Source of the DNA: a virus
Strand: one strand, 5' to 3'
DNA length: 64,000 bases
Virus record (IMG/VR): IMGVR_UViG_3300009103_000003
Coordinates: 1 to 64,000 of that record
The translations under genes and the position numbers were made by a program. Below the pieces are notes generated by a model. It made no database searches. It had not been told where the DNA came from and saw only the letters and a list, made by a program, of their open reading frames with translations. Positions within the stretch are counted from its first letter, which is position 1. Every line of letters begins with the position of its first letter. This document shows positions 10,394 through 58,588 of this stretch, piece by piece.

Positions 10394-10729
10394 ATGAACG
10401 TTACGGAAATACGTGATTCAAAGGTGAAACTTGCGATAAGTCTGCAAGCCGCCCTTGAAGCGTCGAAAAAGGGCGCGGCGAGCCTTGGAGCACAAGCCTC
10501 AAAAGCAGGTGCTTTCGCCACTAAACATAAGAAACTTATTGGGGGTACCGCTGCTGGTATAGGTACCGCCGCATTATTAGCAAAATTGCTAAAAGCCAAG
10601 AAAGGCGCTAATGCCCTTTCAAAGTCAAAACTGACAGCTTTGCTCAAAAAGCATAAAAAGCCCCTCATGGTCGGGGGCGGTGCGGTAGCTGGCGCTGCCG
10701 GTTTAGGTGCACTTCTCTCAAACAAGTAA
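10394..10729 (+). CDS. Small cationic Gly/Ala-rich protein with two hydrophobic repeats
   Basis: A protein of 111 residues. Two similar halves each start with K-H-K-K and continue into a Gly/Ala/Leu-rich hydrophobic stretch: KHKKLIGGTAAGIGTAALL near residue 48 and KHKKPLMVGGGAVAGAAGL near residue 90. Lysine is abundant between them. This resembles short membrane-inserting or DNA-associated virion peptides. It lacks the E-K-x-A motif of its neighbours but shares their composition. GGGAGGTACG precedes the ATG. Function unknown; membrane activity is inferred from composition only. Confidence 0.7.
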   Translation: MNVTEIRDSKVKLAISLQAALEASKKGAASLGAQASKAGAFATKHKKLIGGTAAGIGTAALLAKLLKAKKGANALSKSKLTALLKKHKKPLMVGGGAVAGAAGLGALLSNK

Positions 10730-10762
10730 TTTTACTACATTAACCGTAAAGGGGTTAGAAAC

Positions 10763-11368
10763 ATGTTAGATCCGAATCGCAGAAGAAATTTAGAAATCGT
10801 CATCCACGAGGAACTCGAAAAGCAGGCTATGCTTTCAGGCCTCGTTGCTGCTGGTAAAGGCATTGGTATGGGTGCCAGTGCTGCTGGTAAAGGCATTGCT
10901 GCCGGTGCCAGAGGGGCAAAAGCTCTCGGCGCTGGAGCCGCTCGTCTTGGTAGCAAGGCACTCAAAGCCGAAGGAGCAGCCTGGAGTTCTCTTGGAAAGA
11001 ACGTAGCCAACCAAGCAAGCAAGGCAGGCCAATGGGGCAGCAAGAATATTATTGCTCCCGCTAAGTCGGCTTTACAGACTGGGTACAAGACCATGAAGGG
11101 CCATGCTACTGCTGCTGGCAAGGCGCTTAGCGGTGCCGCAACAAGCACAGGAAACGCTCTGACTGCTGCACGTAAGGCAACTTTGGCTAGAGGCGCACAG
11201 GGGCTGGCCGCTACCAAGGCTGGTGGTAAAGCTACTGGCTCAGCACTGCTTCGTGGTGGTAAGGCAACTGGTGCAGCATTGACCTCACCTACCGCTAAGA
11301 AGATTGGTGCCGAGGCCGCTCGTCTTGGCGCTGGTGGTGCTGCTGGTTACGGCGCGTCAAAGTTATAA
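10763..11368 (+). CDS. Cationic Gly/Ala-rich protein with E-K-x-A motif
   Basis: A protein of 201 residues. A short charged N-terminus ends in HEELEKQAML (about residues 15-24). The rest is nearly all Ala, Gly, Lys, Thr and Ser in degenerate repeats such as AAGKGI, GARGAK and GGKATG. Acidic residues are scarce after residue 25. Such a composition suits a protein packed with DNA in the capsid or one passing through or into membranes. The motif recurs in the genes at 12279, 16025 and 18397. No known domain was recognised. Long opposite-strand frames here are composition artefacts. Confidence 0.75.
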   Translation: MLDPNRRRNLEIVIHEELEKQAMLSGLVAAGKGIGMGASAAGKGIAAGARGAKALGAGAARLGSKALKAEGAAWSSLGKNVANQASKAGQWGSKNIIAPAKSALQTGYKTMKGHATAAGKALSGAATSTGNALTAARKATLARGAQGLAATKAGGKATGSALLRGGKATGAALTSPTAKKIGAEAARLGAGGAAGYGASKL

Positions 11369-11384
11369 CCTAGGCGTAGGATTT

Positions 11385-12275
11385 ATGTTGGCTGTGGCAG
11401 ACCCAGTATCGGAATTTCTTAAGTACGCAGGGGATACTCAAGTACGAGCACACTCCAGGCGAACCAATGGGAAAGTTGTATCTGTAAGACAGCACACCCG
11501 AGAAGACGATGACGATGTTGGCAACAGCACAGACAAAGAACTTTCCACGTTCAACGCTTTAGACGACTTAGACGCTAAGAAAAGTCGAGAGCTAGAATTG
11601 TGGAAAAGGTGGAAAGCCAATGGGGAGGGGCCGGAAGATCTTCGGCCTCTCCTCAAAAGCTTCCGACCCATGATCCGGTCAAAGGTAAATGTATATAAGG
11701 GTAAGGTGAAGATGATTCCCGACTCCGCTATAGAGTCCGAATTCCAGCTTCGTTTTGTGGATGCCTTGCGATCCTACGACCCCGAGAAGGGGTCTTTGGG
11801 GACCTATATATTTCGCTATTTAGATAAAGCAAAACGCTTTATCGTTGAGAACCAAAACATTGGTCGAATCCCTGAAAACAGGGTGTATAAAATCAAACAG
11901 TTCTCGGTTGCACGGGACGAGTTGGCTGAAGATCTTGGCCGAACTCCCGTCACCAAGGAAATCTCCGAACGCTTAGGTTGGTCATTGGCCGAGACCGGGC
12001 GGATGGAGGCAGAGCTACGGAACGACCTTCTGTCACAAGGATTTGAGGACGATCCCTATGCGTTAGCCCCCTCTAAGTCAGAGGAGGTCTTGCGCCTATT
12101 TAAGTACGAATTAACCGGTAATGAACGCGAAGTTTACGAGTACCTGACTGGACACGGTAAGCCGCAAACATCTTCCACAGGTGATATTGCTCGTGCCATG
12201 AAGATCCCCGATTACCAAGTCAGCCGACTGAAGAACACTATTAAAAAGAAACTTCAGCGTTACCTTACGGAGTAG
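11385..12275 (+). CDS. Phage RNA polymerase sigma factor, sigma-70 type
   Basis: A protein of 296 residues from the ATG at 11385, which follows GGCGTAGG and avoids overlap with the previous gene. An acidic N-terminus precedes a region 2-like segment: LRPLLKSFRPMIRSKVN, then RFVDALRSYDPEKGSLGTY and IFRYLDKAKRFI. A region 3-like helix set follows (DELAEDLGRTPVTKEISERL), then a region 4 helix-turn-helix (LTGNEREVYEYL, DIARAMKIPDYQVSRLKNTI). Sigma factors guide RNA polymerase to promoters, and a phage copy typically directs late genes. It lies amid virion genes rather than with regulators. Which promoters it reads is unknown. Confidence 0.85.
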   Translation: MLAVADPVSEFLKYAGDTQVRAHSRRTNGKVVSVRQHTREDDDDVGNSTDKELSTFNALDDLDAKKSRELELWKRWKANGEGPEDLRPLLKSFRPMIRSKVNVYKGKVKMIPDSAIESEFQLRFVDALRSYDPEKGSLGTYIFRYLDKAKRFIVENQNIGRIPENRVYKIKQFSVARDELAEDLGRTPVTKEISERLGWSLAETGRMEAELRNDLLSQGFEDDPYALAPSKSEEVLRLFKYELTGNEREVYEYLTGHGKPQTSSTGDIARAMKIPDYQVSRLKNTIKKKLQRYLTE

Positions 12276-12278
12276 ACA

Positions 12279-13451
12279 ATGGACGACGAAAAAAGATTAC
12301 TCACATCAATTAAGAGTATGGACAGGGCCGCTGAATTAACGAAGCACGCAAAGCTTAGTGTTAGCGATGTTGAGGATGACCTCGGCATCTACCTGTCAGA
12401 CAAAGATGAGACCAAGGTTCGTCGTCTAATCAAAGAGCGCACAGGCAAGTCTTTCGCTATGCGCCACCCATTGCTTACGGGTATCCCTACTTTAGGTATT
12501 GCTCCTGCGGTTGCGAAAGCTAACGCAAAGGAGAAGATCATCCGGCGACTGGCCAGGGATGACGTTAAACTTCGTGGTGAAATGGCGGCTGCTAAAGACA
12601 AGCGCAGAGCAGAAGCCCTAGAAGAATATAAGGCAACTACTGAACGCGACAAGGCGAACCAAGCCTCTCGCGCAGCAGGAGCACTCGGTAGATCGGGTGT
12701 TGAGATTGCTGCATTATTAGCTGCTAGTAAGCGAGCAAACATGCAGAAGGAATCCGCTGCTAAGGCGACGTTTTCTCCCGCGATGGATAAGAGCCCCGCT
12801 TTAAAGGGTAAGCAGTCCAAGCTCCCAGATAAGATTCAAGCAGGCATTCTTAAGAAGAAGATGAAGAAAAAAGAGGCGGCTGTTGTACGCAGCGGCCTTA
12901 TTCAAGCATCGGAAGCTCTCTACACAGATCTCTACGCTAAGCGTGGACTCGAAAAACGCGCTAATCCTTTTGCTGCAATGTTTCCCTCGCTTACTCGTGG
13001 CGCAGGAAAATGGGCTGCTGGCGGTGCCGCCCTTGGCGGCTTAGGCGCGGGCGCTCGCCGCCTTTCTCAGTTACGGGAATTAGCCGCCTCCGGTGGCCGA
13101 GGGAAGTGGGCCAAGGACTGGCACAAGGCTATGGCCGAGAAGAGTGTAGCCGCAAAAGCCGGTGAAACATACACAATGCCTGGAAGGCTTGCACAAGAAT
13201 CACAATTCTTGAAAGCCCAAAAAGGACTCAAAGGAAAAGCTTTTGCTGATGCCCCGATGGAGTACTTGAAGGCTTACGGGCCGGAAGTAGCCAAGGCTAT
13301 GCTGGAAGGCGGTGGCGCAGCAGCGCTTGCTGGCGGTGCATCTCGTATGGCTGCAAATTGGGCGAGACGTAAGAAGATGATGGATACTGCTAAAGCAGTC
13401 GCTGTTCCGGCTGCTCTGGGCCTTGGTGGATATGCGCTACTCAAAGATTAA
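12279..13451 (+). CDS. Lys/Ala-rich protein with E-K-x-A motif and Gly/Ala-rich C-terminal half
   Basis: A protein of 390 residues. The first 220 residues are highly charged and helical, with an internal proline/glycine stretch (HPLLTGIPTLGIAP near residue 63). At about residues 223-240, KRGLEKRANPFAAMFPSL introduces a Gly/Ala-rich hydrophobic part (WAAGGAALGGLGAGARRL). A second such stretch closes the protein (VAVPAALGLGGYALL). The layout of helical head, E-K-x-A motif and membrane-like tail is shared with neighbours. It starts 3 bases after the sigma gene stop, so the two are probably cotranslated. Candidate internal or ejected virion protein; not proven. Confidence 0.75.
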   Translation: MDDEKRLLTSIKSMDRAAELTKHAKLSVSDVEDDLGIYLSDKDETKVRRLIKERTGKSFAMRHPLLTGIPTLGIAPAVAKANAKEKIIRRLARDDVKLRGEMAAAKDKRRAEALEEYKATTERDKANQASRAAGALGRSGVEIAALLAASKRANMQKESAAKATFSPAMDKSPALKGKQSKLPDKIQAGILKKKMKKKEAAVVRSGLIQASEALYTDLYAKRGLEKRANPFAAMFPSLTRGAGKWAAGGAALGGLGAGARRLSQLRELAASGGRGKWAKDWHKAMAEKSVAAKAGETYTMPGRLAQESQFLKAQKGLKGKAFADAPMEYLKAYGPEVAKAMLEGGGAAALAGGASRMAANWARRKKMMDTAKAVAVPAALGLGGYALLKD

Positions 13452-13465
13452 TGGGGGAGGCGTAA

Positions 13466-13834
13466 ATGCTACCGAGGAATGTGGACTACATAACGAAGCT
13501 CGCTGAGGGTGGATACCTAGATAAAGTTATCTCTGCGTTTACTCGTGTATTCGGTGGGGCAAAATCACAAGGTACCAAGAGTACCGATGCGCCTTCCGCG
13601 CCAAGACCCGCACCGGTTATTAGGCCCTACCCCGATCCTGCGCCCCAAACAAGCACTGGCCAACTAAAGACAGATACCAAAACACGGGTTCTTAGTCCTA
13701 TGGAAAGAACTCGGATGCGTAATGCCTTTAAGAGTAAGCAACTGAAACGCCTGGAAGGGAAAGTCACTACGGGCACTGGGTTAAGAAGGGCCGAGGCAGC
13801 AAGGAAAGCACTGGGGGTGCCCAGTGGCAGATGA
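13466..13834 (+). CDS. Basic hypothetical protein, 122 residues
   Basis: Not recognised. The N-terminus (ITKLAEGGYLDKVISAFTRV) is helical and amphipathic. It is followed by GGAKS, a proline-rich linker (SAPRPAPVIRPYPDPAP), and a very basic helical end (RTRMRNAFKSKQLKRLEGK). The net charge is strongly positive. GGGGGAGGCGTAA is an excellent ribosome binding site. The composition fits a DNA- or RNA-contacting virion protein, related in style to the E-K-x-A proteins around it. Confidence 0.7.
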   Translation: MLPRNVDYITKLAEGGYLDKVISAFTRVFGGAKSQGTKSTDAPSAPRPAPVIRPYPDPAPQTSTGQLKTDTKTRVLSPMERTRMRNAFKSKQLKRLEGKVTTGTGLRRAEAARKALGVPSGR

Positions 13835-14069
13835 ACCAGTTTCGACAGCACCTGAGAATAAAAACGAACTTCTAGCGAAGCTTCGGGATCAGGTAAAAGA
13901 ATATGTTACCTCAGAGAAGCTTCGGCTAATCACTGAGCGCACATTTTTGAAGTCTGTTTTGGAAAGTAGCTTAGGTAGTCCAGAGGCCAAGGAAAAGAAG
14001 TATAATGAGGTCGTAGTAATAGAGAACGTCAAGAAGTTGATTGGCATAGTCAATCCAACTAATAAGTGA
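13824..14069 (+). CDS. Small helical hypothetical protein, GTG start
   Basis: A protein of 81 residues from a GTG inside the end of the preceding gene (11 bases of overlap). It is rich in Lys, Glu and Leu and mostly helical, with a possible coiled coil (ELLAKLRDQVKEYVTSEKL). No in-frame ATG exists near the beginning, so GTG is the best start. Not recognised. Overlap suggests its amount is tied to the basic protein before it. Confidence 0.65.
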   Translation: MADEPVSTAPENKNELLAKLRDQVKEYVTSEKLRLITERTFLKSVLESSLGSPEAKEKKYNEVVVIENVKKLIGIVNPTNK

Positions 14070-14081
14070 GCGAACCGATAA

Positions 14082-16028
14082 ATGAAGGCGATATTAAAAA
14101 CAGAGAGAACGTTACCGTTCTTTGATTCCGCAGCCGAGATTGGCCTAGACCCGTTTGTGCTCCAAATTTTGGACCCTACTGGTGTCGAGGTGGCCGTTTT
14201 GGCTATGAATCAAGTAGTATCTGCCCCTAACTTGTTCTTAAGCGACGCCTTCTCGCCCCAAGATCTTGGGCAATACCAACTGATCTATAAATATGGGGAC
14301 CCACTAGCCCCTATTTTTTACACCACTCTTGAAGTTGGCGCGGCACCTATTTCCGATTTCCCGTTAGGCACCCCGGTAGACATTGTATTAGACGATAATA
14401 TCCTCGGTGGCCCAGGGCAACCAATCACCGCGCACCTATATGATGGCGCTGGGCAGTCACTTTCTGCCACCAGTTTCGCTTCGTTTATCGGTGACGAGCC
14501 GATAACAACTATACCAGTTAGTAATAATGACTCGTTGACCCTGCAAGTACTCCCCGATCCCAATGCGGTCGGAGCCCAAACTGTCACATTTTTGTGCGCG
14601 TCTACTGTGGCAGTCGGAGGGGCGGCTGGGAACTATGCAGGGACCAGCGCGGGGGATACCGCTACCTACCAAATTGATGGCGGTATTCCTCGAACATTGG
14701 ACCTTAGCGCAGTAGCGGCTGGACAAGTCAACTACATCAACGCCCTAAACGCACAGCTTCGCGGGGCATCTGCCAGGGATGATGGTGGAGGCATAACAAC
14801 TCTCGTCACGGATAGCCAAGGCTCCAGTTCTGAGATCGTACTATCAAATTTTGGTGGGACATTTGGAGCTAATACGGGCCTCTCAGAGGCTACCTACGCG
14901 GCCAATGGCGCTGCCAACAACGTAGGCGACAGTGACGCAGTAACCTTCTTAGAATTGAAGCTGCTCATTGAGACGGGCGTTATGGATGGGGCTCAGGGCG
15001 ACCGTGTTCTAGTGACCCTAGAAGAAGACACAGACAACTTAGTGCTTAGTGCGACAAGTGGTGTCGCAGGAAACCTAAGCCAAATAGATTTGACGGCGGG
15101 GACAGCGTCTGTTCTTTCCTCCCTTGGACTTACGTCATTAGGGACACAAGGTGGCGGACTTGCCGCAATCGGGTCTGATGGAATAAGCGTCCAAGCTCTT
15201 TATTCTGCACTGGTTGATGGGTACGTCATCCAGAATAAGACATTTAACGCAGCACAAGAGGTTTTCGTTGTTTGGTTAAACAATAACGTACAGACCTATA
15301 TGACTGACTATCTTATTACGTCCTCAACGGACACCGAGGTAGTCAACGTATACGCCGCCGAGATAAACCCAACGTACCCGAATGGGAACCCACATATAGC
15401 TGCAACAGTAATTGCGAGCACCCCTGCGGGCGTCCAAATTACTCAAGGAGTTACGGATGTTTCTGGGTACGTTCGGTTAGAGCTTCCTCCTGGGGATCAC
15501 ATTCTCACACTAAGCAAGGCGAACACTGTTTTTTCGCTGAACAATTTCGAGAAGGAAGTCTTCAACTCGTCTGTCGTTCCCGCAGATGATAAGTTGTACT
15601 CTCCTCCCGGAGCATCCGACGTTCAAGCAATCCAACTTATTACAGATAAGTTTAATCCAACAATTACCGCACCACCGGCCCCCGCAGATATGTGTACGCT
15701 ATTTGCGACGCTTTATTTGATGGATGGAACCCCGCTGAGGCACGCAGCAATTAACGTAGGGTTACTGGACAGGCCGCAACTATACTCTGGGACTGCTGTT
15801 ATAGACTCCCAAAAAATCTATAAGACAGACTCAAATGGTTACGTGGAGTTTTCTATTGTGCAGGGCCTCCAGATTGAGGTGAACATAGCTCCGCTATCTG
15901 TACGTCGCAGAATAACGGTTCCTAGTTCAGCAGGACCGGTAAACATAATGACATTGCTGTCGTCAGCAGACGATCCGTTTGACATTATTACGCCCAATAT
16001 TGTTGCTGCACCAAAGAGGACACTATGA
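14082..16028 (+). CDS. Multi-domain beta-sandwich structural protein (648 residues)
   Basis: The composition (Ala, Gly, Ser, Thr, Asp, Val) and alternating beta pattern suit a virion surface or tail protein. Two central copies of a domain resemble flagellin-IN-like modules, with the order strand, Y-I-N-A-L-N-A-Q-L helix, then S-S-E-I-V-L-S (about residues 180-280), and LVLSATSGVAGNLSQI with SSLGL (about 285-350). Residues about 445-485 and 540-610 look like carboxypeptidase-regulatory or transthyretin-like folds (TDVSGYVRLELPPGDHILTL; KTDSNGYVEFSIVQG). The last base pairs overlap the next gene by 4. The ribosome binding site is weak. Role in the virion unknown. Confidence 0.65.
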   Translation: MKAILKTERTLPFFDSAAEIGLDPFVLQILDPTGVEVAVLAMNQVVSAPNLFLSDAFSPQDLGQYQLIYKYGDPLAPIFYTTLEVGAAPISDFPLGTPVDIVLDDNILGGPGQPITAHLYDGAGQSLSATSFASFIGDEPITTIPVSNNDSLTLQVLPDPNAVGAQTVTFLCASTVAVGGAAGNYAGTSAGDTATYQIDGGIPRTLDLSAVAAGQVNYINALNAQLRGASARDDGGGITTLVTDSQGSSSEIVLSNFGGTFGANTGLSEATYAANGAANNVGDSDAVTFLELKLLIETGVMDGAQGDRVLVTLEEDTDNLVLSATSGVAGNLSQIDLTAGTASVLSSLGLTSLGTQGGGLAAIGSDGISVQALYSALVDGYVIQNKTFNAAQEVFVVWLNNNVQTYMTDYLITSSTDTEVVNVYAAEINPTYPNGNPHIAATVIASTPAGVQITQGVTDVSGYVRLELPPGDHILTLSKANTVFSLNNFEKEVFNSSVVPADDKLYSPPGASDVQAIQLITDKFNPTITAPPAPADMCTLFATLYLMDGTPLRHAAINVGLLDRPQLYSGTAVIDSQKIYKTDSNGYVEFSIVQGLQIEVNIAPLSVRRRITVPSSAGPVNIMTLLSSADDPFDIITPNIVAAPKRTL

Positions 16029-17812
16029 GCAGTAATATTGATAAAGGCGCTGCGCTTGAGATTATGCGCCACACAGTTAAGGTTGCTGCTGCTCCCGCAG
16101 TTGGCGGGCTTGCAGGCGCTCCTGCCCCTGAGCCCGGACCACTGAATCCGGGCGGTGGCGGAACGCAAGGCGGCTCGAATAACCCTCAGATGCAGACTGG
16201 CTGGGCCTCTGGGAAAATGCGACAGGCCCTCATTAAGAGGTTCACAGCAAACGCTGCCAACAAGATGAAGCAGAGCGTGAGCACTGCGGCAGGACGCCAG
16301 AACACGGTAGGTGGCATGGGGTCTGGAATGCCTAAGATGGCATCTATCGGTGGTCAGTTAGAGAAGCGTGCCTGGGGGCCACTCAAGCTTGTCGGTGGTG
16401 CTGGCAAAGCCTTATGGGGTGGTGCCCGCGCCTTGTTTGGGGGCAGTAAAGCTGCGCCAGCAGTTGCTAGGCAGGGTGACCTTTTTCGAAAAGCTATCCC
16501 AACAGCACAAGAAGCTCGCGCCGCCGCTCAAGCAGCAGAAAGAGCGCGTAAGGCCAAACAGGTTGCGGATACGGCTGAGAAAGTAAGAAGGTCTAGGTTA
16601 CTAGACCTAAACCGTAACGTCGGTCCTGGCGGGCAGATGGCGTTTAACTTTGGTAATAAATCCAGAGCCGGTAGAATTCTAGACAGTGCGCAACGCGCCT
16701 TCAGAGGCTCTCGCGCTGGACAGGCCACACAAAAGGCTACGAAGACCGTTACTGAGGCTGCTAAGAGAGAAACAGCCGCAGCCAGGGCTCTTGGGAGAGG
16801 CTCCACCTACACTGAGCCTGCTGGCCAGGGCCTAAAGCATTGGGCATTCCACCGAGGCTCTGGGCTTAGAAATATCTGGCGAAACAAGGAGACTGGTGAG
16901 CTTGTTCGCGGGTCTCGTGGGTACTTCCGCCGACCCCCCGAAGGGTTTGAGAAGTTTAAGAGCTTTACTCAAACGGGTGGTTACGGAAACCGTGCGATAA
17001 AGAACACGCTTGCCGCTACAGGCACTTTGGGGGCTACGGGGTATGGGGCCTCCTATCTTGCGAACCCAACTGGTTGGCGGGATAAGGAAACCGGTAAAAC
17101 TCGCATCATAGCCAACCTTACCGATCCACGCAGGCTGGATATGGCTGGTGGGGCCGCAACCCTTGGGGTAGGAGCCACACTGCCGGGGATGGCGTACACA
17201 GGGTACGACATGTTTACCGGTGGTCCCTTACATAAACAATTTATGAAGGGCACAGCCAGCGGCATCGCGTTAGCAAATTCGCCGGGAGGGATCTCTTATT
17301 CTCGCGGCAGGGGCCAAGGCGGCGCAACATACACGGACGTATTGAACAACCTAAGCCCCACCTCGGATAAACTCGAATCCCAAAAACATATCGACATCCT
17401 AAATAAAAACGAGCCCGCAAACAAAAAGAAGGCTGACGAGTACTACAAGGCTCTAGACAAGAAGATTGATTCTTCAGGGGGCGGGCCTACAGGGATGCTT
17501 CTTCCTGGCAAGCGGCAGGATAGACAACTAGCTAGTACTCGTGGGACCAGTAAACCGGTTACCGTTGGCGATGGATCTCAACAAGCCTTGCGCACAGGGG
17601 ACGCACTGCGGAGAGCATCCGCAAAGAAACCCAGTAAGCCAACATTTACAGACGTAGCAGTAGGCAACCTAGACCCAACAGGGACTAAAATTTTCCGAGG
17701 CGCTGCGCAAAAGCTCAAGCCACCCAAGGAGAACCGGGTAGCGAAGTTACAAGCTAAAAAGAGAAAGCTTACGAAAGCAATGGCGAACTCAAAACCCTTA
17801 ACGGTGGCATGA
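16025..17812 (+). CDS. Large cationic Gly/Ala-rich protein with E-K-x-A motif
   Basis: A protein of 595 residues. A short helical head (LEIMRHTVKVAA) precedes a Gly/Pro linker. At about residue 110, QLEKRAWGPLKLVGGAGKAL carries the motif shared with three neighbours, followed by Ala/Arg-rich helices (ARAAAQAAERARKAKQ). The middle, about residues 255-310, has a more compact, aromatic part (HWAFHRGSGLRNIWRNKETG). The end is basic and Lys-rich. The ATG overlaps the preceding stop (ATGA). Candidate internal virion or genome-ejection protein on composition and context. No enzymatic motif was seen. Confidence 0.75.
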   Translation: MSSNIDKGAALEIMRHTVKVAAAPAVGGLAGAPAPEPGPLNPGGGGTQGGSNNPQMQTGWASGKMRQALIKRFTANAANKMKQSVSTAAGRQNTVGGMGSGMPKMASIGGQLEKRAWGPLKLVGGAGKALWGGARALFGGSKAAPAVARQGDLFRKAIPTAQEARAAAQAAERARKAKQVADTAEKVRRSRLLDLNRNVGPGGQMAFNFGNKSRAGRILDSAQRAFRGSRAGQATQKATKTVTEAAKRETAAARALGRGSTYTEPAGQGLKHWAFHRGSGLRNIWRNKETGELVRGSRGYFRRPPEGFEKFKSFTQTGGYGNRAIKNTLAATGTLGATGYGASYLANPTGWRDKETGKTRIIANLTDPRRLDMAGGAATLGVGATLPGMAYTGYDMFTGGPLHKQFMKGTASGIALANSPGGISYSRGRGQGGATYTDVLNNLSPTSDKLESQKHIDILNKNEPANKKKADEYYKALDKKIDSSGGGPTGMLLPGKRQDRQLASTRGTSKPVTVGDGSQQALRTGDALRRASAKKPSKPTFTDVAVGNLDPTGTKIFRGAAQKLKPPKENRVAKLQAKKRKLTKAMANSKPLTVA

Positions 17813-17813
17813 C

Positions 17814-18410
17814 ATGAAATCTTGGTTTGCGAAAAGATTCTACATTGTAGCCATCTACTGGTGGTGCCTGTGGAGCCGTCTATATCGGTTTCTTTATCAT
17901 AGGAAGTACAAGAATTTCGTCGCACCTAAAGGCTACCTAACAATAGATGAGGCCAATCGAGAGATGGCCAAACTTACTTGGACCAAAGATGGCACCAAAG
18001 AACTTTGGGATTCCATGGGCTCGGATGGTTGGGTCCAATACGTACTTAATTGCATTGATGCCGGGGAGGGCCAACCAGTCGGAGCACTAGATTGCGACGA
18101 CTTTAGCTACTGGGCTTCCAGGGTCTTGCAGGATCGATATAACGCAGTAATATTCGTATTTTCCTGGATTAGTGATAAAAAGCTACTAGGGCATGCGATG
18201 TGTTGGTGCGAACTTGATGGGAGCTATGTTCATATTGGGAATTGGGGACAGTCGAGTCCGTACAACTCCCTCAAGCCCGCTTGCGTGGACATCTTAGATA
18301 TGTACAGCGAGTCCAGTCCTATTGGTTGGGCCCTGTTAACAAATAATTTATGGCCGATTACATGGGGCGTAGGCCTTCCCGGCGAAGAGGTTACCAATGG
18401 ACAACACTAA
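17814..18410 (+). CDS. Transglutaminase-like cysteine peptidase family protein with membrane-like N-terminus
   Basis: A protein of 198 residues. The first 34 residues are Trp/Tyr/Arg-rich (WFAKRFYIVAIYWWCLWSRL), forming an amphipathic or membrane helix. Residues 92-145 fit the bacterial transglutaminase-like fold: Cys94 in ALDCDDFSYW and His127 in LLGHAMCW. The third catalytic position is probably Asn143 in HIGNWG rather than the usual Asp. Members cut or cross-link proteins. Inside a virion gene cluster this one might process or modify a structural or host protein. It overlaps the next gene by 14 bases. The fold call rests on motif order and spacing only. Confidence 0.6.
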   Translation: MKSWFAKRFYIVAIYWWCLWSRLYRFLYHRKYKNFVAPKGYLTIDEANREMAKLTWTKDGTKELWDSMGSDGWVQYVLNCIDAGEGQPVGALDCDDFSYWASRVLQDRYNAVIFVFSWISDKKLLGHAMCWCELDGSYVHIGNWGQSSPYNSLKPACVDILDMYSESSPIGWALLTNNLWPITWGVGLPGEEVTNGQH

Positions 18411-19260
18411 CTTACGACATGCACTTATTAAGGTCGCAGCACGCAACAGTTTTAGAGAGGCATTTGTTGACGAGCTAGTGAAGATTGACCCTGAATTCGA
18501 GAAGTTCGCCTGGGCTTGGGCCAAGAGAAAAGCCGGTCAAGCGTGGAGTGGGATGAAGCGGGCAGGACGCTGGGCTAAAAATAACCCTTGGGCCGTTGCT
18601 GACGGTCTCCTGACTGCTTCTATGTTCATCCCCGGCGTCAATGTCGTGGGAGCAGGGTTGCGCGGAGCCTCCCTAGCAGCCAGAGGTGGTATGGCCCTGT
18701 ATAGAGCGAATAAGCTCAGAAAGGGTCTTCAGGCAGGTAAGACTCTAGCGACAGGCGGCGCAAAGCTCACGCAGGGATACCAAAAATTACGTCAAGCAGG
18801 CATGGGTGCCCAACAAGCACTCAAACAAGTTGGCGGCATGAAAAACGCGCTGACAACACAAGGCCAAATAGCCAAGTATACGCAACAAGCGAACAGACTT
18901 AAGAACCAAGCCTCTACCGCATTCAAAGGGATGAACCCGCTCAACAGAGGCGGGATGGGCATGGGTAAGGTTACTCCAGGAAACACTTGGAGTGCGATAG
19001 GCAAGGGTGGCCCGCTCTGGAAGGGCGGCAGAATATTAAAGGCAGGGCCCCAGGTTGGTGGGAAAACGAGACAAGCTTTACGCCTTGGCGGGACTGCTGC
19101 TGGTGGCAAGTTTATGTACGATTCTGCCACAAGAGACTATAAGAAGAACCCTCTAGGAACATTTGGTGACGCCGCTACCTTTGGTGGTGGCCCAATGACG
19201 AATCGTGGCGGCGGTTCGTCGTATACTGGGGTCATTGGGGCCGCAGGCGCGAGGAGATAA
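18397..19260 (+). CDS. Cationic Gly/Ala-rich protein with E-K-x-A motif
   Basis: A protein of 287 residues. The N-terminus repeats the theme of its relatives: LRHALIKVAARNSFREAFV, then EFEKFAWAWAKRKAGQAW at about residues 33-50. A hydrophobic stretch (ADGLLTASMFIPGVNVVGAG, residues 68-87) could span a membrane. The rest is Gly/Gln/Lys-rich and basic, with many Q-A and G-G-M steps. GAGGTTACCA precedes the ATG within the transglutaminase-like gene. The tight overlap suggests the two are made together. Candidate ejection or membrane-penetration factor; inferred only. Confidence 0.75.
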   Translation: MDNTNLRHALIKVAARNSFREAFVDELVKIDPEFEKFAWAWAKRKAGQAWSGMKRAGRWAKNNPWAVADGLLTASMFIPGVNVVGAGLRGASLAARGGMALYRANKLRKGLQAGKTLATGGAKLTQGYQKLRQAGMGAQQALKQVGGMKNALTTQGQIAKYTQQANRLKNQASTAFKGMNPLNRGGMGMGKVTPGNTWSAIGKGGPLWKGGRILKAGPQVGGKTRQALRLGGTAAGGKFMYDSATRDYKKNPLGTFGDAATFGGGPMTNRGGGSSYTGVIGAAGARR

Positions 19261-57415: not shown

Positions 57416-57739
57416 TTACTCCTCCGATGGTGGGGCGTCTCGCAGTTCGATCAGTCTATCTATTTCCTCAATATCCTCTTCGAGCACACTCATATCGTCA
57501 CTGACGGTTTTGGCTCGATCAAACTCTGAATAGGCCATGTCGCTTAACCCATCGCTTGCATCGGATAAGTGCCGATATTCAATCTGAAGCTCTTGGAGCT
57601 TCCGGTTTTTTGAGGACCTCAGAACATCCAGAGCCTCACCAGAGGCCACCTTTTCCATGGCTTCAGTTTCATCTGACACCATTCCTGACATAATTAGGTC
57701 GTCTACCAAGGCTTTCGGTATTGCGTATTTTGTTTTCAT
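57416..57739 (-). CDS. Small helical hypothetical protein, 107 residues
   Basis: Not recognised. Start ATG at 57739, six bases after AGGAGGG and inside the end of the GIY-YIG gene (4 bases of overlap). The N-terminus KTKYAIPKALVDDLIMSGM is followed by a long charged coiled-coil-like C-terminus (EEDIEEIDRLIELRD). It ends one base before the RecA-like gene begins. A partner or regulator of the recombination protein is possible. Confidence 0.65.
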   Translation of the reverse strand: MKTKYAIPKALVDDLIMSGMVSDETEAMEKVASGEALDVLRSSKNRKLQELQIEYRHLSDASDGLSDMAYSEFDRAKTVSDDMSVLEEDIEEIDRLIELRDAPPSEE

Positions 57740-57990
57740 TTGTTGCCCTCCTTCGAGCAAATCTTCTCTTTGTCTTTTTTAGACAATTTTTTGAAGCCTA
57801 TCTCGTATTTGAGGGCCTCTGATTTATTATCAAACTTTATGGTCATAGCCAAGGAAACCGGCCTTCGGCTTCGTGTATATTTAGCCCCACAAGCCCTAGT
57901 GTTGTGGTCTTCTATGCGTCTCTCTACGTTAGTTGTAATACCCGCATAGAGAGAGTTGTCAGAACATCTGACCGCATAGAAGAACCACAT
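57736..57990 (-). CDS. GIY-YIG nuclease family protein (UPF0213/YhbQ type)
   Basis: A protein of 84 residues. FYAVRCSDNSLYAGITTNVE has the G-I-Y ... Y-I-G core in its A-V-R/Y-A-G form, followed by RRIEDHN and GAKYTRSRRPV, which are typical of the small single-domain YhbQ-like subgroup. Such proteins nick DNA or act in repair; activity of this subgroup is not well defined. It may help process recombining DNA. It sits 2 bases from the tiny membrane ORF upstream of it in the operon. Confidence 0.8.
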   Translation of the reverse strand: MWFFYAVRCSDNSLYAGITTNVERRIEDHNTRACGAKYTRSRRPVSLAMTIKFDNKSEALKYEIGFKKLSKKDKEKICSKEGNK

Positions 57991-58069: not shown

Positions 58070-58588
58070 CTACTTCCTGGGTAGTGTGTTAGTGGTTGTG
58101 AACCTCGGCAGTCTTCTACTTTCATCAAATATTAGCAAGCATGAAGGCGCTGGCGCAGAGGCCGGTGCTCCCTCAAACCTGATCCTACCCTCGATTAGTC
58201 GGACCTCAGCGGCCTTCATAGCCCACCGATGCCACCACTTAGTATCAGACCTACAGAAGGTCAGAACCACCACTACAAGCCCATTGAGGGATTCCTCGTA
58301 AGCCTTTTGAATCCACTTACCAATGTCCCTTCCATACGGAGGGTTCAACCAAACCGCAGCACCAGTTGGGTCACAACCAGTTTCTACTATCACACTTCCC
58401 CAGGACTCTTTTAGGGAGTCTTGCTCGCTGGTGATATACAGAGCGCTTTTCGCATTGTTGGGGGAGGCAGCAGCATCCATGACAAAGAAGAACTCCTCAT
58501 TCAAGGCATCAAACAGCGCCTGTGGCGTTGCCCAATCCTGCCTATCAGAGGAGAAAAGTTGTTCTTCGTTCCAACTAGTTTTGCTCAT
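58070..58588 (-). CDS. Phage Dam-like DNA N6-adenine methyltransferase
   Basis: A protein of 172 residues. The pattern DWATPQALFDALNEEFFF, then VMDAAASPNNAK and AVWLNPPYGRDIGKWIQKAY, and SDTKWWHRWAMKAAEVRLIE follows the phage Dam family, with N-P-P-Y at 82-85 as the catalytic motif of N6-adenine methylases. The commonly seen P-A-R-T-D-T-K-W-W is F-C-R-S-D-T-K-W-W here. No restriction enzyme is nearby, so its job is probably to protect phage DNA from host restriction or to mark newly made DNA. The target site is unknown. Confidence 0.85.
   Translation of the reverse strand: MSKTSWNEEQLFSSDRQDWATPQALFDALNEEFFFVMDAAASPNNAKSALYITSEQDSLKESWGSVIVETGCDPTGAAVWLNPPYGRDIGKWIQKAYEESLNGLVVVVLTFCRSDTKWWHRWAMKAAEVRLIEGRIRFEGAPASAPAPSCLLIFDESRRLPRFTTTNTLPRK

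What the first reader, a model, noticed from the sequence alone, without database searches (positions are those of the whole stretch)
10394..19260. Family of cationic Gly/Ala-rich proteins sharing an E-K-x-A motif
Four proteins (10763, 12279, 16025, 18397) each have a charged or helical head and a short motif (LEKQAM, LEKRANPF, LEKRAWG, FEKFAWA). A lysine-rich, hydrophobic Gly/Ala stretch follows the motif. A fifth (10394) shares the composition only. The repeated arrangement suggests a common signal or cleavage point and common fate, for example packaging inside the capsid and ejection with the DNA. I know of no named family that fits.
Basis: partly seen in the sequence, partly recalled or inferred. 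Interest (0 to 1): 0.65.

Follow-up and report, generated by a model that had tools for sequence, protein, structure and literature searches.

The report
Phage capsid cargo with cleavage tag
This large virus of bacteria appears to mark many of its own proteins with a short lysine-x-alanine tag that its capsid-maturing protease probably cuts, so that the tag can be read from sequence to guess which proteins travel inside the virus particle.

Summary
The four motifs lie where stated (4 found, 0.21 expected). They are cases of a genome-wide short motif, hydrophobic-x-Lys-x-Ala, about tenfold enriched in head genes outside the window and at background in tail and replication genes. It flanks the phage's own head-maturation protease domain; those two sites persist in Vibrio phage D69, Salmonella phage Arash and Bacillus phage G. 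D69's scaffold-position protein carries nine copies. In Arash, whose virion proteome is published, the motif is concentrated in detected virion proteins (19 found, 2.9 expected; others 5 and 2.6). Relatives keep Lys and Ala at orthologous sites while the bodies diverge; mature-side bodies avoid the motif but keep its Arg version. Best reading: Φ-x-K-x-A|(S/A/G) is the prohead-protease site, and the window proteins are capsid-packaged cargo with a removable N-terminal propeptide, like T4 internal proteins and SPN3US head proteins. A sigma factor and an SNF2 helicase carry the tag too. T4, phiKZ and SPN3US proteases cut after Glu; a Lys-x-Ala rule would be a new variant. Cleavage, its exact bond and ejection are inferred, not shown.

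The parts
10394..10729 (+). cationic Gly/Ala-rich protein (111 aa) with two hydrophobic Gly-rich segments; predicted cargo, degenerate tag SKVKLA, K-x-A at residues 12-14 (10421-10435 covers residues 10-14)
   Evidence: positional counterparts carry MNALEKLAAK (G006) or LRVKLAAK (G013)
10763..11368 (+). cationic Gly/Ala-rich cargo protein (201 aa), body after residue 22
   Evidence: K20 and A22 are among the few invariant columns of four positional orthologs
10814..10828 (+). tag LEKQA of ORF 10763, predicted cleavage after Ala22
11385..12275 (+). sigma-70-like factor (296 aa), predicted packaged
   Evidence: phrog_351 E 3.9e-12, Sigma70_r3; homolog Arash gp10 found in the virion
11415..11429 (+). 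tag FLKYA at the N-terminus of the sigma-like factor
   Evidence: present in every related locus as FLKYA, FLKFA or YLKYA
12279..13451 (+). cationic cargo protein (390 aa): long charged N-terminal propeptide, Gly/Ala body
12336..12350 (+). first tag LTKHA of ORF 12279
12948..12962 (+). second tag LEKRA of ORF 12279, propeptide-body junction
   Evidence: aligned to MEKQA in G013
13466..13834 (+). small basic protein (122 aa) with N-terminal tag ITKLA (13490-13504)
   Evidence: counterpart in L073 begins MPVGKTDYLAKLAE
16025..17812 (+). cationic cargo protein (595 aa)
16073..16087 (+). N-terminal K-x-A site TVKVA of ORF 16025 (LTKEA and FTKEA in relatives)
   Evidence: K19 and A21 invariant in four orthologs
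16328..16342 (+). tag MPKMA of ORF 16025
16358..16372 (+). tag LEKRA of ORF 16025, propeptide-body junction
   Evidence: MEKEA in G013, LEKTA in L073, IRKEA in G006
18397..19260 (+). cationic Gly/Ala-rich cargo protein (287 aa)
18424..18438 (+). first tag LIKVA of ORF 18397
   Evidence: K12 and A14 invariant
18496..18510 (+). second tag FEKFA of ORF 18397, after the conserved IDP
   Evidence: IDP-EFEKFAW / YMEKVAW / DFEKVAF / DFEKTAG in relatives

Best explanation
Φ-x-K-x-A, usually followed by Ser, Ala or Gly, is the recognition and cleavage site of this phage's head-maturation protease (contig ORF 95753-97438). The proteins at 10763, 12279, 16025 and 18397 (also 13466, the sigma-like factor 11385 and probably 10394) are internal head cargo. 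Their N-terminal segment takes them into the prohead with the scaffold. After assembly the protease frees itself, cuts the scaffold into pieces and removes the cargo propeptides, probably after the Ala, leaving cationic Gly/Ala-rich bodies in the DNA-filled head, probably for delivery into the host. Shown here: position, enrichment, conservation, protease-boundary sites, avoidance in bodies, link to virion proteins in Arash. Inferred: that cutting happens, the exact bond, targeting by the propeptide, ejection.
For: (1) The head block outside the window has 14 strict motifs, 1.33 expected; tail genes 1 and 0.79; replication and other genes 4 and 2.94. (2) ORF 95753-97438 matches a head maturation protease profile (phrog_18299, 5e-9, residues 70-217). 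It has sites just before (27-31) and just after (227-231) that domain; the pair recurs in D69 (LEKSA, LQKVA), Arash (LTKQA, LEKVA) and Bacillus phage G gp19 (LVKTA, LEKVA) at 34-42% identity. (3) The protein after the protease has 4 copies here and 9 in D69, where nearly all are KxA|S or KxA|A. (4) Arash: 19 motifs, 2.85 expected, in 71 robustly detected virion proteins; 5 and 2.56 in the rest. (5) At strict sites Lys and Ala are identical in 0.87 of 15 aligned cases in G009, against 0.57 and 0.51 for other Lys and Ala. (6) In seven phages, 27 of 32 cationic Gly/Ala-rich ORFs of this block have a site in their first 40%; shuffles give 11.6, maximum 20. (7) In 16 cargo proteins the last 60% has 6 ΦxKxA (12.6 expected) but 15 ΦxRxA (8.3 expected); Fisher p 2e-4 for K against R by part. 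(8) A shared N-terminus MN(A/S)LEKxAAK sits on several different proteins per genome.
Against: No protease assay or N-terminal mapping exists for this phage. The bond (after Ala) is inferred. Only one relative (Arash) has a virion proteome, and its list of 116 proteins probably includes contaminants. The MCP site has Lys, not a hydrophobic residue, at the first position (GKEKIA). The RNA polymerase, whose Arash homolog is abundant in virions, has no conserved site, and Arash's own sigma lacks an N-terminal one, so the tag is not needed for packaging. The AlphaFold model of the protease was poor (pLDDT 47), and in phage G some ΦxKxA sites lie inside the protease domain. Some other Lys patterns are also thin in the bodies, which weakens the avoidance test.
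Confidence: 0.75

Rival explanations
1. ΦxKxA is a docking motif, not a cleavage site: it binds the scaffold, protease or inner capsid surface and so brings proteins into the prohead, and nothing is cut there.
For: It explains the head-gene enrichment, the Arash association and the shared N-terminal MNxLEKxAAK. Multiple copies in a scaffold would give avidity.
Against: It does not readily explain sites just flanking the protease domain in four divergent phages, Ser, Ala and Gly among the commonest next residues, or avoidance of the motif in the body parts while the Arg version is kept.
Confidence: 0.13
2. The proteins are cargo cut by a Glu-specific prohead protease as in T4 or SPN3US (after Φ-E), and the K-x-A part is incidental.
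For: Many copies read ΦEKxA, and known relatives cut after Glu (PMC5694885).
Against: The Glu is not constant (LVKVA, MAKVA, FLKYA, LTKEA), whereas Lys and Ala are. The sites flanking the protease mostly lack the Glu.
Confidence: 0.05
3. Compositional coincidence: Lys- and Ala-rich helical proteins throw up ΦxKxA by chance.
For: The loose motif in the window block alone is near expectation (10 found, 7.1 expected).
Against: The strict motif is 10-20 fold over shuffles in head genes, at background elsewhere in the genome, conserved by position, and concentrated in N-terminal parts.
Confidence: 0.02
4. The proteins are tail or baseplate components and the motif marks a tail assembly step.
For: The block lies between tail and baseplate genes in the window.
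Against: The tail genes themselves hold the motif at background, and the motif is concentrated around terminase, protease and capsid genes.
Confidence: 0.05

Closest known systems
Phage T4 internal proteins (IPI-III, Alt) with capsid targeting sequence and gp21 protease
   Same: basic internal proteins; short N-terminal segment for packaging, removed by the prohead protease; scaffold chopped by the same enzyme (as summarised in PMC5694885)
   Different: T4 cuts after Glu; here the conserved residues are Lys and Ala. No profile match to T4 internal proteins found
Salmonella phage SPN3US and phiKZ head proteins (gp245 protease, A-X-E)
   Same: large phage; many head proteins with propeptides carrying several protease sites; identical N-termini on diverged proteins; Ser preferred at P1'
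   Different: cleavage after Glu at A-X-E; unrelated cargo; here a sigma factor and an SNF2 helicase appear tagged
Herpesvirus assemblin and its scaffold (release and maturation sites ending in Ala-Ser; own knowledge)
   Same: protease followed by a longer C-terminal region with further sites; predicted Ala|Ser bond; phage prohead proteases are held to be homologous to it (Cheng 2004, cited in PMC10052503)
   Different: Lys two residues before the Ala is not a herpesvirus requirement; no sequence match to solved structures found
Salmonella phage Arash virion proteome (PMC10585845)
   Same: related protease, capsid protein, RNA polymerase, sigma factor and helicase; motif enriched in detected virion proteins
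   Different: lacks the cargo block between hydrolase and baseplate genes; no protease or cleavage is mentioned in the paper

Membership tests
T4-type internal head protein with capsid targeting sequence | N-terminal peptide ending in the site of the prohead protease | tested here: inconclusive
   a candidate site is there: ΦxKxA in the first 40% of 27 of 32 cationic Gly/Ala-rich ORFs in seven phages; that the protease cuts it is not shown
T4-type internal head protein with capsid targeting sequence | cleavage after Glu in (L/I)-x-E | tested here: not met
   Glu varies at the conserved sites, Lys and Ala do not
T4-type internal head protein with capsid targeting sequence | present inside the virion and ejected | not testable with these tools
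   only indirect: motif enriched in Arash virion proteins
SPN3US/phiKZ ejection (E) proteins | A-X-E or S-X-E cleavage motif | tested here: not met
   conserved motif is Φ-x-K-x-A
Phage head maturation protease (enzyme at 95753-97438) | profile match and head-gene position near the capsid gene | tested here: met
   phrog_18299 5.2e-9; capsid protein profile 1.1e-4 a few genes downstream; no Pfam match
Phage head maturation protease (enzyme at 95753-97438) | catalytic His and Ser | tested here: inconclusive
   His104 and Ser160 invariant in nine relatives; role not tested, model poor
Herpesvirus assemblin-type maturation | sites at the protease-scaffold junction and near the C-terminus, Ala|Ser | tested here: inconclusive
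   sites at 227 and 481 of the protease ORF, mostly conserved among close relatives; cleavage not shown; no sequence match to solved structures
P22/T7-type ejection proteins | sequence homology to internal virion proteins | tested here: not met
   no significant PHROG match for any of the cationic proteins

The most novel reading that the evidence does not exclude
A lineage of head-maturation proteases in phages of Gram-negative and Gram-positive hosts uses a Lys-x-Ala|Ser rule instead of the Glu rule. The site doubles as part of a portable N-terminal packaging tag, so the virion cargo of uncultured phages, including a transcription sigma factor and an SNF2 helicase, can be listed from sequence alone.
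Probability: 0.5. Interest if true: 0.75.

Novelty: new variant of a known kind. Interest (0 to 1): 0.62.

Why it matters
Which proteins large phages carry in their heads and inject is usually learned only by proteomics of cultured phages. A sequence-readable cleavage and packaging tag would let cargo be predicted for uncultured phages, give a role to several unknown gene families, and add a second specificity class beside the prohead proteases of T4, phiKZ and SPN3US, which cut after Glu. It makes testable predictions for three cultured phages (Arash, D69, G).

Tried and rejected
PHROGs and Pfam searches of the window proteins gave no useful hit except the sigma factor. Megablast against cultured phages found nothing. 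Searches for the cargo proteins in viral contigs found few relatives, so relatives were reached through the protease and the sigma factor. An alignment of the ORF 10763 family was too diverse to search with. The AlphaFold model of the protease was too poor to place the sites, and no solved structure matched its profile. A single common protein family was rejected: the proteins share composition and tag, and no common profile was found. A Glu-directed site was rejected because the Glu varies. The loose motif alone was rejected as proof, because it is near expectation in the window block. Paper searches found no published K-x-A rule.

Full report
What was checked. The window is the first 64 kb of a 181,199-base virus record. 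The remaining 117 kb was read as L002-L007.

The motif in the whole genome. A scan of all ORFs showed that the motif generalises to hydrophobic-x-Lys-x-Ala, often ΦEKTAS or ΦEKLA, and that it is dense around the head genes at about 70-105 kb. The last genes of the contig have 3 (0.12 expected), tail genes 1 (0.79) and replication and other genes 4 (2.94). In the head, window-block and contig-end proteins together, changing one residue abolishes the excess: ΦxRxA 21 (24.2 expected), ΦxExA 27 (24.2), ΦxKxS 19 (24.9), against ΦxKxA 62 (34.5). In the window block alone the loose motif is not significant (10 found, 7.1 expected), so it was not used as evidence there.

What the head genes are. The large terminase is at 91108-92763 (phrog_675, 4.6e-72), a head maturation protease at 95753-97438 (phrog_18299, 5.2e-9, residues 70-217), the capsid protein at 100215-101420 (phrog_2522, 1.1e-4) and the sheath at 106703-111166. 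Just after the protease lies a 202-residue acidic protein in the scaffold position with four motif copies.

The protease carries the motif on both sides of its domain. Site 1 (residues 27-31, LVKVA|S) precedes the domain and site 2 (227-231, MAKVA|S) follows it. Both are kept in relatives down to Vibrio phage D69 (LEKSA, LQKVA), Salmonella phage Arash (LTKQA, LEKVA) and Bacillus phage G gp19 (LVKTA, LEKVA), although the domain is only 34-42% identical. The exception is L018/L019, where site 2 reads MVYIA and an FEKVA follows some 25 residues later. In D69 the gene after the protease, in scaffold position, has nine copies in 269 residues, nearly all KxA|S or KxA|A, and a gene two before the protease has nine more. 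The capsid proteins of D69 (LTKEA|G) and Arash (LVKEA|G) have the motif about 25 residues in. In this phage and its relatives the same place reads GKEKIA, GKEKLA or GRTKLA: Lys and Ala are kept, the first position is not hydrophobic.

A measured virion proteome. Arash has a published virion proteome (PMC10585845). Taking proteins with at least five unique peptides as robust, the strict motif occurs 19 times in 71 such proteins (2.85 expected, none of 300 shuffles) and 5 times in the other 175 ORFs (2.56 expected). Two of those five lie in gp225, which the paper also lists with two peptides. The paper reports virion sigma factor, helicase and RNA polymerase subunits, whose homologs exist here.

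Conservation of the sites. Three relatives were read at length: G013, G006 and G009. At strict sites the Lys and Ala are identical in 0.90 and 0.95 (G013), 0.78 and 0.78 (G006) and 0.87 and 0.87 (G009) of aligned cases; other Lys and Ala in the same proteins give 0.69/0.65, 0.56/0.49 and 0.57/0.51. The first position stays hydrophobic in 48 of 53. In the ORF 10763 family only 16 columns are invariant, and two are the K and A of the motif. In the 16025 family 12 columns are invariant, again including a K-x-A pair, at residues 19 and 21. ORF 18397 keeps IDP followed by the motif. The sigma-like factor has FLKYA, FLKFA or YLKYA near its N-terminus in every related locus. The SNF2-type helicase (PF00176, 3.7e-20) keeps a tag at residues 7-11 in the five close relatives aligned.

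A test that did not select on the motif. In seven phages, all ORFs of this block that are cationic and Gly/Ala-rich were picked by composition alone: 27 of 32 have a site in their first 40%; shuffles give 11.6 on average and 20 at most in 1000. Other ORFs of the block show 14 of 47 (5.4 expected), about half of which are the sigma factors.

Cutting or docking. If the motif is a cleavage site it should be avoided in the mature part. In 16 cargo proteins from four phages, the first 40% has 32 ΦxKxA (8.5 expected) and 8 ΦxRxA (7.4), the last 60% has 6 ΦxKxA (12.6) and 15 ΦxRxA (8.3) (Fisher p 2e-4). The parts were fixed by length, not by the motif. Some other Lys patterns are also thin in the bodies, so the Arg comparison is the one to trust. 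With the protease-flanking sites and the commonness of Ser, Ala and Gly after the Ala, this favours cleavage over docking, but it is not proof.

A shared N-terminal tag. MN(A/S/V/E)LEKxAAK or a close variant begins three otherwise different proteins here (93851, 104642, 179136), seven in G006, five in G013 and two in G009. SPN3US has a comparable case of identical N-termini on diverged packaged proteins, and T4's capsid targeting sequence is the classic one (PMC5694885).

Mechanism proposed. N-terminal segments take the cargo into the prohead; after assembly the protease frees itself at its two flanking sites, chops the scaffold, probably trims the capsid protein and removes the propeptides. 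The bodies stay with the DNA. What they do is open. They are basic, as T4 internal proteins are, and several have Gly-rich hydrophobic segments that would suit membrane insertion during DNA entry, as in T7 and P22 ejection proteins (own knowledge); this is inference.

Limits. No cleavage was observed. The bond is inferred from the last conserved residue and from herpesvirus and SPN3US preferences. The motif is not needed for packaging in general, since the RNA polymerase lacks a conserved site. The protease structure prediction failed. Literature searches in the open-access library found no earlier description of this rule, but subscription papers were not searchable.

Verdict. A new variant of a known kind: T4/SPN3US-like head maturation and cargo packaging with a Lys-x-Ala recognition rule, with signs of it from this phage group to Arash, D69 and phage G.

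Noticed in passing
contig 74330-80605 (L002:10330-16605): A single 2091-residue ORF holds both beta-type (Rpb2) and beta-prime-type (Rpb1) RNA polymerase domains, i.e. a fused multisubunit polymerase; its homolog in Arash (gp206) is the most abundant virion protein in that paper.
   Followed up: partly
contig 87394-89163: SNF2-type helicase with an N-terminal LGDYLTKSA tag conserved in close relatives; Arash's homolog gp217 is in the virion.
   Followed up: partly
window 11385-12275: Sigma-70-like factor inside the cargo block with a conserved N-terminal FLKYA; the listed ORF from TTG at 11304 is probably too long, the ATG at 11385 fits the relatives.
   Followed up: yes
G006 contig about 98.8-101.3 kb: A run of several different small proteins all starting MNxLEKYAAK or similar, a possible cassette of packaged proteins.
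   Followed up: no
window 17814-18410: ORF among the cargo genes without the motif; conserved in the same place in G013; no family match.
   Followed up: no
window 57736-57990 and 58070-58588, minus strand: Small ORFs that by eye resemble a GIY-YIG nuclease and a Dam-type adenine methyltransferase; not searched.
   Followed up: no
L067 (Bacillus phage G) gp4, gp7, gp11, gp14 portal, gp20, gp38: Several phage G head-region proteins carry ΦxKxA, some near their start (portal MAKQA, gp20 LKKTA, gp38 LIKKA), suggesting the same rule in phage G; no statistics done.
   Followed up: partly
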